A model generated the notes under the pieces. It did no database searches, was not told where the DNA came from, and saw only the letters and a list, made by a program, of their open reading frames with translations. This document shows, in pieces, positions 17,283 to 57,500 of a stretch of 64,000 nt of DNA. Source of the DNA: a virus; the IMG/VR virus record IMGVR_UViG_3300033146_002139, positions 1-64,000 of that record; one strand, written 5' to 3'. Each line of letters begins with the position of its first letter. Position 1 is the stretch's first letter. The translations under genes and the position numbers were made by a program.

Positions 17283-17981
17283 CTATTTAAAATCTTTGCC
17301 CATTGTCTTTCTTGTAGTTTTCATACTTTCTTCTTCGTGTACACTAAATGTATACTCATTCAAAAAAACATATCTTATAGGATGTGCTACAATACTCAAG
17401 AAGTATACCTCTCCACTTATTAGGTCGTTGATAGCTACACTATTCACAGTGTTGGCTTGTGGATTATGTGCATTTCCATACACATAGTTAATTAGTTTTC
17501 TGTTAACAAACTTTTTAGCTTCACTATATGTACTAAAAACTTTTGGGGTGAATTCCAATTCTGTCAATTTCGCTGAAGATAAACTCCAAAGAGTTTCTGA
17601 AGCCCAATTTAAGGCTTGACAATTATCTTCTTTATCAAATCTTTGTATGTAAAAATCATTTGACACAGAAACCGTATATCGGTTTTCTTTCCTGATGTCA
17701 ACCAATTTATTCTCTATAATATATTCATCCTCAAGTCTAGAAAACTCTCCCGTCAACTCTTCGTATCTTGAGTAAGTAACAGCGAAGTCTGTTTTGCCAT
17801 CTTCATTCTCAACAACCAAATCAAAAGCATCATTGAGAAGTTTCCTTACTTGACTTTTTGCTAAACATCCTGAAGCAACTACCATGTTTCCATCCATGGC
17901 AATTACTCCCATTTCATTACTAGCTAATTCATTAAATGCTAAGCTGTAATGATTTCCTGGAGCAAACTTTTTCTTATACAT
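17283..17981 (-). CDS. hypothetical protein
   Basis: 232 residues, SD AGGGGA. Mixed alpha/beta; VFSTYSEAKKFVNRKLINYVYG is helical. Translationally coupled to the ArdC-like gene (8-bp overlap), so it may act with it. No domain recognised. Confidence 0.68.
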   Translation of the reverse strand: MYKKKFAPGNHYSLAFNELASNEMGVIAMDGNMVVASGCLAKSQVRKLLNDAFDLVVENEDGKTDFAVTYSRYEELTGEFSRLEDEYIIENKLVDIRKENRYTVSVSNDFYIQRFDKEDNCQALNWASETLWSLSSAKLTELEFTPKVFSTYSEAKKFVNRKLINYVYGNAHNPQANTVNSVAINDLISGEVYFLSIVAHPIRYVFLNEYTFSVHEEESMKTTRKTMGKDFK

Positions 17982-18867
17982 TTCCCAATTCCCCTATAAT
18001 TTTATCAGCCTTATCTACAGCAGATATTAAAGTTTCCATTCTCATCCCAAGAGCCTTTCCTCTTGACCAAGATTTAACATATAGCTCAGCATTCGTATCT
18101 AAGCCAATACTTTTCATCATTACAAAAGCAAATGAGTGAGCTTCAGTTTCCTTTAGCTCTGAAGTTAAGTCTTGCCTGTCTTTACCAAAGTGCATAAGGT
18201 AATGACCTAATTCGTGCAATAAGACAGGAATCTTACTCTCTACATTAGCATTCGAGTTAACTACTAACTTTTCTCCATCTGTCCAACCACCTCTTGCTAG
18301 TACATCAGGTTTTTCTTCGACCGTAATGTTTTTAGCTTTTAGAGAAGCTCTTAACTTGGCATAGAGGTCGGCATAATTTATCGTATCTTTACCGAATACC
18401 CTCAGCGTGCCATTTGCAGGTAATTCATCGCCTTCTGTGTTCTGTATATCATACACAGTTACAGCCTTAAAGATAGAATATGTATACTCTTTTTTAAGAG
18501 CATCTAATTCTTCTTTACTCATTGATAAAGTTGTTGCTTTTTTTAGCCCATCCCAATTGATTTTCGTCATTGGAGACAATATCTTCAACCCAACACCTTT
18601 CCCACTAACAAATCTACCAAGTGCTTTCCACTTACTAAATGGTGCGAGTTGCGAAATCTCAACCTTACCCATATTCTGGGTCATAGCTAATAATATATTA
18701 TATAGGGAATAAGAGTGAAAACCTTTCACAATCCCTTTCTTTATCCACATCGCATTTGCAATAGTTTCTGGAGTTACCTTAGCAACTCTTTCTTTTAGTT
18801 CTGCAATTGCTTTTTTCGTTTCTTCGGCATATTGCTTTTTATTAAAATTTTTCTTCTTCCAACCCAT
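17974..18867 (-). CDS. ArdC-like antirestriction protein with metallopeptidase motif
   Basis: 297 residues, SD CGGGGGT. The N-terminal part (FHSYSLYNILLAMTQN, then FSKWKALGRFVSGKG) matches the ssDNA-binding ArdC N-terminal pattern. The C-terminal part has LLHELGHYLMHF and KETEAHSFAFVM, the HExxH...E zincin signature. ArdC-type proteins bind ssDNA and protect entering DNA from restriction. NYAD in the linker is encoded by an ATGCCGACC nonamer. Confident in family; activity is inferred. Confidence 0.82.
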   Translation of the reverse strand: MGWKKKNFNKKQYAEETKKAIAELKERVAKVTPETIANAMWIKKGIVKGFHSYSLYNILLAMTQNMGKVEISQLAPFSKWKALGRFVSGKGVGLKILSPMTKINWDGLKKATTLSMSKEELDALKKEYTYSIFKAVTVYDIQNTEGDELPANGTLRVFGKDTINYADLYAKLRASLKAKNITVEEKPDVLARGGWTDGEKLVVNSNANVESKIPVLLHELGHYLMHFGKDRQDLTSELKETEAHSFAFVMMKSIGLDTNAELYVKSWSRGKALGMRMETLISAVDKADKIIGELGNV

Positions 18868-19138: not shown

Positions 19139-19363
19139 TTAATGTTTAAATATTTGTTTAATTTCAGTATCTCCAACTATTAGTTCTCTACCCTTAAAGC
19201 AAGGTTCTTTAATAGCTTTTGATAGCCTCAGTGAAGACATAAGTAGCTTAATTCGGTGTCCAAGCCCCTTCATACCTTGATAAGTAAAGTTTACTTTCTC
19301 TACATATAAAGCGCTAAATTCAACACCTTGTACATTGACCTTACATATTCTCTGTGTAGACAT
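19139..19363 (-). CDS. small basic protein under a structured leader
   Basis: 74 residues, basic, starting STQRICKVNVQGVEFSALYV. Its SD (GGAG) and the first base of its ATG lie inside a perfect 13-bp hairpin (19363-19409) in the message, so translation is probably controlled by the upstream RNA structure. Function unknown. Confidence 0.66.
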   Translation of the reverse strand: MSTQRICKVNVQGVEFSALYVEKVNFTYQGMKGLGHRIKLLMSSLRLSKAIKEPCFKGRELIVGDTEIKQIFKH

Positions 19364-19515
19364 AAGTCTGCTCCGAATTCCCTTTATAAAATTATCCGGA
19401 GCAGACTTAGGGGTTGGAAGTCCACTCCAGTGTGTTCGCCCAAATCACTGAACACAATAGCAACCAAGTAAGGATACGAACCTCATAGCTCCAAATTCAG
19501 CTCTTGGTCGTTGGT
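19363..19515 (-). ncRNA. structured leader: tRNA-elbow-like fold plus SD-masking hairpin
   Basis: Read leftward from 19515: stem GACCAAG/CTTGGTT encloses AGCT-GAATTTGG-AGCT (D-arm-like) and TGAGG-TTCGTAT-CCTTA (T-arm-like) with no anticodon arm. Next comes hairpin TGTGTTC/GAACACA (7 bp). Last comes a perfect 13-bp hairpin (19397-19409 with 19363-19375) that contains the SD GGAG and touches the ATG. The layout is an aptamer-like domain followed by a translational switch. The class is not one I recognise. Confidence 0.6.
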
Positions 19516-19532
19516 CGGCATTAGCTATTATT

Positions 19533-19904
19533 TTATGCAATAATTACTTTTGCATTTTTTATTTTGTTTTTTCTGTGGGTTATAACATTTCTACATCCAA
19601 CATATAACTTAATGAATAAGTCTCCACCTTGTTTAAATCTAAAAGTCTTTCCAATATCTAAAGACTTAAATTCCACAAACTCAGGCTTTGTTGTTTCAGC
19701 CGTAAGAGCTGCAAACATTTTTTCAGCTTGTTCTTTTATGTAAGTTTCATCACACTTAGTAAATGTAAAGCTTTTCACACTCAGGCAGTCAACAATAGAA
19801 GTTGCAACTGTTACATCTTTAAACTGTGAAACAGTTACTTTCTTATTCCCTTTGCTTAGCACTATGTAGTTCGGTCTGATAGACATATATTTTCTCTTCA
19901 ACAT
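19533..19904 (-). CDS. hypothetical basic protein
   Basis: 123 residues, SD GGGGA. Contains YIVLSKGNKKVTVSQFKDV and a basic C-terminus (RNVITHRKNKIKNAKVIIA). Nucleic-acid binding possible. An ATGCCGACC nonamer lies just after its stop. Confidence 0.67.
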   Translation of the reverse strand: MLKRKYMSIRPNYIVLSKGNKKVTVSQFKDVTVATSIVDCLSVKSFTFTKCDETYIKEQAEKMFAALTAETTKPEFVEFKSLDIGKTFRFKQGGDLFIKLYVGCRNVITHRKNKIKNAKVIIA

Positions 19905-26466: not shown

Positions 26467-26540
26467 TACATCCGTAGCTCAGTGGTAGAGCAAGACACTT
26501 TAATGTCGAGGTCGATAGTTCAACTCTATCGGGTGTACCA
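26467..26540 (+). tRNA. tRNA, Lys-like or UUA-reading, atypical
   Basis: Canonical D-arm AGCTCAGTGGTAGAGC, T-arm GATAG-TTCAACT-CTATC and encoded CCA. The anticodon arm is GACA-CTTTAA-TGTC with a six-base loop. Aligned on U33 it reads TTA (ochre); restoring one T gives TTT (Lys). The acceptor is also one base short or shifted (TACATCC/GGGTGTA). Both missing bases would sit in homopolymers, so a sequencing indel is possible. Confidence 0.7.
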
Positions 26541-28913: not shown

Positions 28914-28974
28914 GGAGAATGTATGGTAAAAATAAAAGGAGGCTTCCGATTGTAAAACTACAACGGAGGTTTAA

Positions 28975-29208
28975 ATGGCATCAAGACGTAAATTCGAGTT
29001 GAATGATAAAATGAAGAGGAGAGACTTCTCTTTATCACTAGGAAGAGGTTTTCGAGGAACTAGCTGTCCAAGGTGGTGGAGAAAGAAGTATAAGAATCAA
29101 GCCAAGACTATTGTACACAGGCATATTATGAATGTATCAAGAGGTCTTGAAGATGATAAGTCGCTTCCAGGAAACCACAGACATGTAGGTAGCTGGGATT
29201 GGTGGTAA
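28975..29208 (+). CDS. small basic protein
   Basis: 77 residues, SD CGGAGG. Arg/Lys/His/Trp-rich (GTSCPRWWRKKYKNQAKTIV, ending SWDWW). Likely nucleic-acid binding by charge alone; family unknown. Confidence 0.66.
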   Translation: MASRRKFELNDKMKRRDFSLSLGRGFRGTSCPRWWRKKYKNQAKTIVHRHIMNVSRGLEDDKSLPGNHRHVGSWDWW

Positions 29209-56314: not shown

Positions 56315-56343
56315 TTGACATTTATTAAACAAATCCCTATATT
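56315..56343 (+). promoter_or_regulatory. promoter inside the homing-endonuclease leader
   Basis: TTGACA, 17-bp spacer, TATATT. The -10 hexamer is the first half of the left arm of the hairpin at 56334-56385, so RNA started here lacks that arm. Confidence 0.7.
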
Positions 56344-56385
56344 GTTGTTAGTGTGAAATTACTCGCATTGACAACAATATAAGGA
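56334..56385 (+). promoter_or_regulatory. RBS-masking hairpin
   Basis: TATATTGTTGT (56338-56348) pairs with ACAACAATATA (56371-56381), 11 bp. After a single mismatch TCC (334-336) pairs with GGA (383-385) of the SD AAGGAG. In read-through RNA the SD would be blocked. Confidence 0.65.
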
Positions 56386-56393
56386 GATTTAAA

Positions 56394-57500
56394 ATGACAG
56401 AACAATGGAAAAGTATTAAAGGATTCGAGAACTACGAAATAAGCAACGCAGGTAATGCAAGAAAAAAAGAAGAAACACTAATAAGAAGTGATGGAAAGCC
56501 ATACACATTCGAGTTAAAGGTTTTAAAGCAAGAATTACTAGGAAATGGACTCTTGCGAATTGTTCTTAAAAATAGCCATAAAGTTAAAAAGCGAATTAAA
56601 GTACATATTTTAGTTGCTGAATACTTTGTTGATAAGAATGACAACGATAATATCATAAGTCATGTTGACGGAAACTTACAAAATAATAATGCATCAAACT
56701 TAAAGTGGAGCCATAGAAGTGTTAGGCAGAAAAAAATACTTAAACCTTTAAGCGATAAAAAAGATGATGCTAAAAACGGTATTTTTTGGAAAGCTGTAAA
56801 AAACTTTGAGGGGTTTTACGAAGTTAGTAATATGGGTACAATTAGAAGCCTAGATAGAGTTGTTAATGATTTAAGATGGGGGTCTAGTTTTGTAAAGGGA
56901 CAAATTCTTAATCCAGAAAAAACAGCATCGTTAAGTGTTAGATTGTCAAATAACAGTATATCTAAAAAAAGATTTAAAGTACAAGATTTAGTTTGCAATG
57001 CTTTTATCAGAGACATCGAATTTAATGAGTATATATTATTTAAAAACAACAATAGACACGACTGTTCAGTTTTCAATATAGAAATAGAAAAGATAAAAGA
57101 AACAAGAGTAACGAAACATCTTGAACAAGAAAAAATGCTTGAAGGGGAAATATGGAAAACAGTACCTTTTGCACTTAAATATCAAATATCATCGAAAGGA
57201 AGAGTTAGAAGTTCTTTTGGAAGACTAATGTCTTTATCTAACTCTCAGGATTATACAAGTGTATCTGTAATAACAGACGAGAAAAAACACAAAACAATTC
57301 GTGTTCACAGATTAGTAGCAACCACATTTATAGCTAACCCTGAAAATAAGCTTGTAGTTAACCATAAGAATGGGGATAAAAGCGACAATAGAGTAGAAAA
57401 TTTAGAATGGCTAACACAATCAGAAAATGTATTACATGCTCATAATAATAACCTGTATGGCAGAAATAAAAACAATAAAAAAGAAAATAAAGAAAAATAA
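56394..57500 (+). CDS. homing endonuclease with three NUMOD4/HNH units
   Basis: 368 residues. Three repeats each begin W-K-x-(I/V)...Y-x-(I/V)-S-x-x-G-x-x-R: about 4-105, 130-235 and 250-350. Unit 1 has SHVDGNLQNNNASNLKW, unit 3 has NHKNGDKSDNRVENLEW (both HNH_3-type with H-x-x-G-x-x-x-N-N). Unit 2 has FKNNNRHDCSVFNIEI and lacks the catalytic His. Inserted directly behind the capsid gene. Basic and modular, a free-standing mobile element. Confidence 0.85.
   Translation: MTEQWKSIKGFENYEISNAGNARKKEETLIRSDGKPYTFELKVLKQELLGNGLLRIVLKNSHKVKKRIKVHILVAEYFVDKNDNDNIISHVDGNLQNNNASNLKWSHRSVRQKKILKPLSDKKDDAKNGIFWKAVKNFEGFYEVSNMGTIRSLDRVVNDLRWGSSFVKGQILNPEKTASLSVRLSNNSISKKRFKVQDLVCNAFIRDIEFNEYILFKNNNRHDCSVFNIEIEKIKETRVTKHLEQEKMLEGEIWKTVPFALKYQISSKGRVRSSFGRLMSLSNSQDYTSVSVITDEKKHKTIRVHRLVATTFIANPENKLVVNHKNGDKSDNRVENLEWLTQSENVLHAHNNNLYGRNKNNKKENKEK

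What the first reader, a model, noticed from the sequence alone, without database searches (positions are those of the whole stretch)
19363..19515. Riboswitch-like leader: tRNA-elbow mimic followed by a 13-bp SD-masking hairpin
The message upstream of the 74-residue gene folds into a stem enclosing a D-arm-like hairpin (AGCT-GAATTTGG-AGCT, with GG in the loop) and a T-arm-like hairpin (TGAGG-TTCGTAT-CCTTA). A 7-bp hairpin follows, then a perfect 13-bp hairpin containing the SD GGAG and touching the ATG. It looks like a sensing domain plus translational switch, possibly sensing something that recognises tRNA elbows (for example a nuclease or modifying enzyme).
Basis: partly seen in the sequence, partly recalled or inferred. 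Interest (0 to 1): 0.8.

Follow-up and report, generated by a model that had tools for sequence, protein, structure and literature searches.

The report
Phage mRNA leader with two-state switch
The stretch of phage messenger RNA in front of a small unknown gene can fold in two mutually exclusive ways, one hiding and one freeing the ribosome-binding site, so it looks like a built-in translation switch; the tRNA-like domain in front of it is real as a predicted fold but its role as a sensor is unproven.

Summary
On the minus strand, the 169-nt gap before a 74-aa ORF holds a three-way junction (P1 8 bp, P2 4 bp, P3 5 bp), a 7-bp hairpin (P4) and a perfect 13-bp hairpin that buries the SD and touches the ATG. 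That hairpin is the strongest SD-masking one among 273 predicted genes of this 168-kb phage. CTGGAGTGGACTT (19430-19418) pairs over 13 bp with the same left arm (2 of 4000 shuffles), freeing the SD. Where this segment differs from the SD arm, all four changes keep the pairing. The predicted fold flips from 'open' to 'masked' only when the last nucleotides before the ATG are made. This is the anatomy of a two-state translational switch. The tRNA-elbow reading is weaker: the junction scores 13.8 bits against a model of this phage's own tRNA bodies (E 4e-4 in the leader, about 0.4 genome-wide), but lacks the U54-A58 T-loop pair and the 8-9 linker. No relative of this phage was found, so conservation, the stated refutation test, could not be run. 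The ligand, if any, is unknown. The same phage encodes Ro60 and tandem Y-RNA-like tRNA mimics.

The parts
19139..19363 (-). 74-aa ORF controlled by the leader; function unknown, no family match
   Evidence: Coding-like codon usage; no PHROG/Pfam match; no relative found; AlphaFold2 without an alignment uninformative, pLDDT 46
19364..19532 (-). 169-nt non-coding leader in an otherwise tightly packed minus-strand gene run
   Evidence: Sequence; gap table; fold z -4.1
19461..19510 (-). tRNA-like three-way junction: P1 19510-19503/19468-19461 (8 bp), P2 19502-19487 (4 bp, loop GAATTTGG), 1-nt linker, P3 19485-19469 (5 bp, loop TTCGTAT) stacked directly on P1
   Evidence: MFE; 13.8 bits against model R1
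19431..19456 (-). P4, 7-bp hairpin TGTGTTC/GAACACA (-8.3 kcal/mol). Alternative P4' (19452-19446/19432-19426, -7.1 kcal/mol) would eat into segment 1
   Evidence: Suboptimal folds; P4 pairs listed
19418..19430 (-). Segment 1, CTGGAGTGGACTT: anti-sequestor arm, pairs over 13 bp with segment 2
   Evidence: -17.9 kcal/mol hairpin; 2 of 4000 shuffles as good
19396..19409 (-). Segment 2, TAAGTCTGCTCCGG: shared arm, pairs with either segment 1 (19408-19396) or segment 3
19363..19375 (-). Segment 3, CGGAGCAGACTTA: SD-carrying arm of the 13-bp perfect (16 bp with inner pairs) sequestor; last base is the A of ATG
   Evidence: z -8.0; rank 1 of 273 genes; P(SD paired) > 0.999
19371..19374 (-). Shine-Dalgarno GGAG, 7 nt from the ATG (19363-19361)
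   Evidence: Sequence
19383..19388 (-). TATAAA in the sequestor loop: possible -10 box for the rival T4-type model, no matching -35
   Evidence: TTTATAAA occurs at chance level in the window; no sigma-70-like site on the minus strand here

Best explanation
A cis-acting two-state translational switch. In the read-through mRNA of the minus-strand operon, segment 1 first pairs with segment 2 (anti-sequestor, SD free, ON). When segment 3 emerges, segment 2 is taken over by segment 3, which buries the SD and the A of the ATG (sequestor, OFF). OFF is the ground state by about 5-7 kcal/mol. ON is a transient, co-transcriptional state that a factor acting on the upstream domain (tRNA-like junction plus P4) could prolong or shorten. 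Shown: the sequences, the complementarities and their rarity, and the computed energies. Inferred: that both states form in the cell, that they set expression of the 74-aa protein, and that the upstream domain is the sensor. The ligand is unknown. Of candidates, a tRNA-binding protein or the timing of RNA polymerase and ribosome itself fit best.
For: Strongest SD-masking hairpin of 273 genes, z -8.0. Anti-sequestor of 13 bp (3 G-U) against the same arm, 2/4000 shuffles. Segments 1 and 3 differ at 4 of 13 positions, all four transitions that keep pairing with segment 2, and their similarity stops at the ends of the pairing region; this is expected of RNA-level selection rather than a DNA repeat. 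Equilibrium of growing transcripts: P(anti-sequestor)=1.0 from 3' end 19396 to 19372, 0.89 at 19368, 0.007 at 19366, 0.0001 at 19364, so the flip falls in the last nucleotides before the ATG. State energies -54.4 (ON) vs -59.4 (OFF) for the leader; findpath barrier ON to OFF about 8.7, OFF to ON about 15.3 kcal/mol (saddle -16.1, ON -24.8, OFF -31.4).
Against: No homologue was found, so no covariation or conservation test was possible. OFF dominates at equilibrium and the ON-to-OFF barrier is low enough for fast conversion, so without a ligand the switch may simply be an off-hairpin. The upstream domain folds identically in both states, so no coupling is visible. Folding is thermodynamic, without pseudoknots, ribosomes or proteins.
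Confidence: 0.58

Rival explanations
1. Plain SD-masking hairpin of the T4 type: long early read-through mRNA is silent, and a late promoter inside the hairpin makes a short mRNA without the left arm, which is translated. Segment 1 is incidental.
For: This is documented for T4 e, soc, 49, I-TevI and homing endonucleases (PMC3014915, PMC2988022). A TATAAA lies in the loop at 19388-19383. The same phage has a likely example at 56331-56395: an SD-masking hairpin whose left arm holds the -10 box of a TTGACA-17-TATATT site.
Against: No sigma-70-like site on the minus strand here; TTTATAAA is at chance frequency in the window; the model does not need the anti-sequestor (2/4000). The phage's late promoter is unknown, so a non-sigma-70 site cannot be excluded.
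Confidence: 0.2
2. The tRNA-like junction is a processing or stability element (for example an RNase P site or a 5' cap on the mRNA), a decayed tRNA gene without anticodon arm, unrelated to the SD hairpin.
For: P1 and P3 stack directly (13 bp) like the acceptor/T stack; the D-arm sequence AGCTGAATT is shared with the phage's tRNA-Asn. The phage has several tRNA bodies with altered anticodon arms.
Against: No CCA or RCCA after P1; T-loop A58 and positions 8-9 missing; no Rfam tRNA match even at E 10; genome-wide E about 0.4.
Confidence: 0.12
3. DNA-level inverted repeat: the 13-bp arms (and the third, direct copy) are an operator for a dimeric DNA-binding protein.
For: Arms are perfect at DNA level with a 21-bp spacer; three half-site-like copies.
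Against: All four differences in the third copy keep RNA pairing, the SD/ATG registration is exact, and there is no promoter match.
Confidence: 0.06
4. Leader-peptide attenuation: a chain of three overlapping mini-ORFs (19521-19483, 19486-19445, 19448-19407) ends with a stop at the start of segment 2, so ribosome position sets the switch.
For: The chain exists and ends exactly at the shared arm.
Against: 167 of 4000 shuffles give as good a chain; no good SD; codon scores are negative.
Confidence: 0.04

Closest known systems
T4-type SD-sequestering hairpins (genes e, soc, 49, I-TevI, segB; Aeh1 mobE)
   Same: Phage mRNA hairpin burying SD and start codon of a downstream gene on a long read-through transcript (PMC3014915, PMC2988022)
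   Different: Here no recognisable promoter in the left arm or loop, and a competing anti-sequestor hairpin plus a structured upstream domain are present
Translational riboswitches / T-box-type leaders with sequestor and anti-sequestor
   Same: Three segments in which one arm pairs with either of two partners, with the SD in the distal one; structured domain upstream
   Different: No Rfam riboswitch or T-box match of any significance; no known aptamer; ligand unknown
YrlA / bacterial Y RNAs (tRNA-mimicking partners of Ro60)
   Same: RNA with D- and T-like arms in a phage that encodes Ro60
   Different: YrlA is circularly permuted (model layout) and carries a Ro60-binding stem; this leader is in tRNA order, lacks that stem and has no YrlA match. 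The phage's own Y-like RNAs lie elsewhere (L004)
tRNA-like operators in mRNA leaders (thrS translational operator, from own knowledge)
   Same: tRNA-like fold in an mRNA leader next to translation control
   Different: thrS mimics anticodon arms and is bound by ThrRS; here D/T-like arms and no known binder

Membership tests
Bistable translational switch (riboswitch-like expression platform) | SD inside a stable helix | tested here: met
   P(paired) > 0.999; rank 1 of 273
Bistable translational switch (riboswitch-like expression platform) | Competing anti-sequestor sharing one arm | tested here: met
   13 bp, 2/4000 shuffles; -17.9 kcal/mol
Bistable translational switch (riboswitch-like expression platform) | Both states populated and expression changes | not testable with these tools
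   Needs probing and reporter assays
Bistable translational switch (riboswitch-like expression platform) | Conserved aptamer with a ligand | tested here: inconclusive
   No homologues found; no significant Rfam match
tRNA elbow / T-loop motif | U54-A58 reverse-Hoogsteen pair closing the pentaloop | tested here: not met
   Loop UUCGUAU has U at 58; all 15 tRNA bodies of the phage have A; description in PMC4810234
tRNA elbow / T-loop motif | GG in D-loop able to meet the T-loop; acceptor/T stacking without linker | tested here: met
   GAATTTGG loop, 0-nt P3/P1 junction; the 3D contact itself was not tested
tRNA gene | ARAGORN / Rfam RF00005 match, anticodon arm, positions 8-9 | tested here: not met
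T4-type hairpin with internal late promoter | Promoter within the 5' arm or loop | tested here: inconclusive
   TATAAA only, no sigma-70-like site; the phage's late promoter is unknown
T-box riboswitch | Rfam T-box match; UGGN bulge in the antiterminator/anti-sequestor | tested here: not met
   No T-box match at E up to 10; UGGA lies in a helix, not a bulge
YrlA Y RNA | YrlA covariance match and Ro60-binding stem | tested here: not met
   No RF02553 match in the leader, whereas the phage's L004 array gives one, below gathering score

The most novel reading that the evidence does not exclude
A phage mRNA leader in which an anticodon-less tRNA mimic is the sensor of a sequestor/anti-sequestor switch, so that a tRNA-binding factor (host tRNA enzyme, or the phage's own Ro60/Y-RNA system) controls translation of a small phage protein.
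Probability: 0.12. Interest if true: 0.82.

Novelty: new variant of a known kind. Interest (0 to 1): 0.5.

Why it matters
Phages are known to bury ribosome-binding sites in hairpins, but a T4 review (PMC3014915) notes that no riboswitch had been functionally characterised from T4. A leader with a true competing anti-sequestor and a tRNA-like domain would be a compact, testable case of a phage reading the state of the cell's RNA machinery. The element is short (169 nt) and can be tested with a plasmid reporter.

Tried and rejected
Relatives: megablast and blastn against 50,697 phages; the 74-aa protein, terminase, helicase, the 297-aa and 123-aa neighbours in IMG/VR; a terminase profile (best 42% identity, 28.9-kb contig; none of 15 such records holds the portal or the leader); portal and terminase in bacterial genomes; exact leader patterns. 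All empty, so no covariation test. Known RNA families: no meaningful Rfam match. A paralogue of the 74-aa protein: none. Structure of the 74-aa protein: uninformative. Leader peptides: chance level. Terminator: none. A generic three-way-junction descriptor is not selective. An attempted energy for P4' used a wrong register and is ignored; the value is used.

Full report
Setting. The window is bases 1-64000 of a 167,706-base IMG/VR virus record with a terminase and a Mu-like portal, GC 33%: a tailed phage. No near relative is in the phage, IMG/VR or bacterial genome collections that could be searched. The feature lies on the minus strand between a 123-aa ORF (stop at 19533) and a 74-aa ORF (start 19363), in a run of tightly packed minus-strand genes. 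The 74-aa ORF has codon usage like its neighbours and unlike its other frames, but no family match, no paralogue and no usable structure prediction.

Observation. The SD hairpin TAAGTCTGCTCCG...CGGAGCAGACTTA is perfect over 13 bp, extends to 16 bp through inner pairs, contains the SD GGAG (19374-19371), and its last base is the A of the ATG; alone it has z -8.0. In a scan of 273 predicted gene starts it is the strongest SD-covering hairpin, with a simple pairing score of -25.8 against -17.0 for the next.

A second partner for the masking arm. The left arm is also complementary to CTGGAGTGGACTT at 19430-19418: 13 bp with three G-U pairs, a 9-nt loop, -17.9 kcal/mol. Shuffling the 123 nt upstream reaches this in 2 of 4000 trials. 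Compared with the SD arm, the segment differs at four of thirteen positions; all four are transitions, and in every case both letters pair with the base opposite. Outside the paired region the two copies are not alike. A DNA repeat that drifted freely would not be expected to keep every change pair-compatible; this is modest but real evidence for selection on RNA pairing.

Order of folding. Folding growing transcripts gives the anti-sequestor with probability 1.0 once segment 2 is out (3' end 19396) and up to 19372, 0.89 at 19368, 0.007 at 19366 and 0.0001 at 19364. The equilibrium thus flips in the last few nucleotides before the start codon. The final state has the SD paired with probability above 0.999. 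Leader energies are -54.4 (anti-sequestor enforced) and -59.4 kcal/mol (free). The direct path has a saddle near -16.1 kcal/mol between -24.8 (ON) and -31.4 (OFF), i.e. about 8.7 kcal/mol out of ON and 15.3 out of OFF. The ON state would be short-lived unless something holds it. P4 (-8.3) has a near-equal alternative P4' (-7.1) that would take the first bases of segment 1, a possible route for coupling to the upstream domain.

The tRNA-like junction. P1, P2 and P3 follow the order acceptor, D arm, T arm, with the anticodon arm reduced to one nucleotide. To test likeness I took 14 tRNA bodies of this phage, removed everything between D and T arms and built a covariance model. The leader scores 13.8 bits over the full length with no broken pair: E 4e-4 for the 186-base stretch, but about 0.4 for the whole genome by comparison with the score list, where the default filters did not report it. 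Ordinary tRNAs score 20-41 bits. Counting intergenic sequence alone the expectation would be a few hundredths (inference). Against a true elbow: U instead of A at T-loop position 58, where every one of 15 tRNA bodies has A; the closing U-A pair is the typical mark of T-loops (PMC4810234); positions 8-9 are absent; and no Rfam tRNA, T-box or YrlA match appears even at E 10. The generic shape is not rare in shuffled sequence. The junction forms identically in both switch states. So the 'mimic' is plausible as a tRNA-derived or tRNA-like domain, and unproven as a sensor.

Rivals. The T4-type hairpin with an internal promoter is the main rival; it is well documented in phages (PMC3014915, PMC2988022) and this phage seems to have one at 56331-56395, but no promoter is recognisable here and the anti-sequestor would be unexplained. 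Mini-ORF attenuation is at chance level and its ORFs do not look coding. A DNA operator and an RNA processing element are less likely for the reasons given in the rivals list.

Verdict. Observation confirmed.

Noticed in passing
L003:17045-19705 (-) and L004:1937-2352 (-), genome about 81.0-86.4 kb: The phage encodes Ro60 (TROVE + vWA). Just upstream lie three tandem tRNA bodies whose anticodon arm is replaced by a 70-94-nt insert; two of these carry an ACCGAATG/GCCGAATG motif like the Y-RNA Ro60 site (from own knowledge). The Rfam YrlA model matches across the junction of two units (29.3 bits, E 2e-4, below gathering), as if the array were YrlA units read in the non-permuted frame. Possibly a new Y RNA arrangement.
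   Followed up: partly
L007:15488-15569 (+): An 82-nt match to the tmRNA family (54 bits, above gathering) that holds the tRNA-like domain but no room for an mRNA-like domain or pseudoknots: a mini-tmRNA or alanine-tRNA-like decoy.
   Followed up: no
L006:9848-9964 (+): A tRNA-like body with a 57-nt insert in place of the anticodon arm, ending shortly before an ATG; possibly another leader-borne tRNA mimic.
   Followed up: partly
window 56315-56396 (+): SD-masking hairpin of 15 or more bp before the gene at 56394, with a TTGACA-17-TATATT promoter match whose -10 box lies in the left arm: T4-type late-gene arrangement.
   Followed up: partly
window 28939-28974 (+): Second SD-masking hairpin (14 bp in two blocks, GGAGG in the right arm) directly before the ATG at 28975.
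   Followed up: no
L004:926-1550 (-): What looks like an HNH-type endonuclease gene (read by eye, no family scan run) preceded by a tRNA-Pro-like 5' half (D and anticodon arms only) and followed by a full tRNA-Pro: insertion at a tRNA gene.
   Followed up: no
window 26467-26539 (+): tRNA with an odd anticodon arm (ARAGORN gives a two-base anticodon); one reading of the loop, CTTTAAT, would give anticodon UUA, which reads the stop codon UAA. Not verified.
   Followed up: no
L006:378-445 (-): RAGATH-18 RNA family match, 57 bits, above gathering.
   Followed up: no
window 17974-18867 (-): IrrE/M78-type metallopeptidase with a weak N-terminal match to the anti-restriction protein ArdC, in the same operon downstream of the leader.
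   Followed up: no
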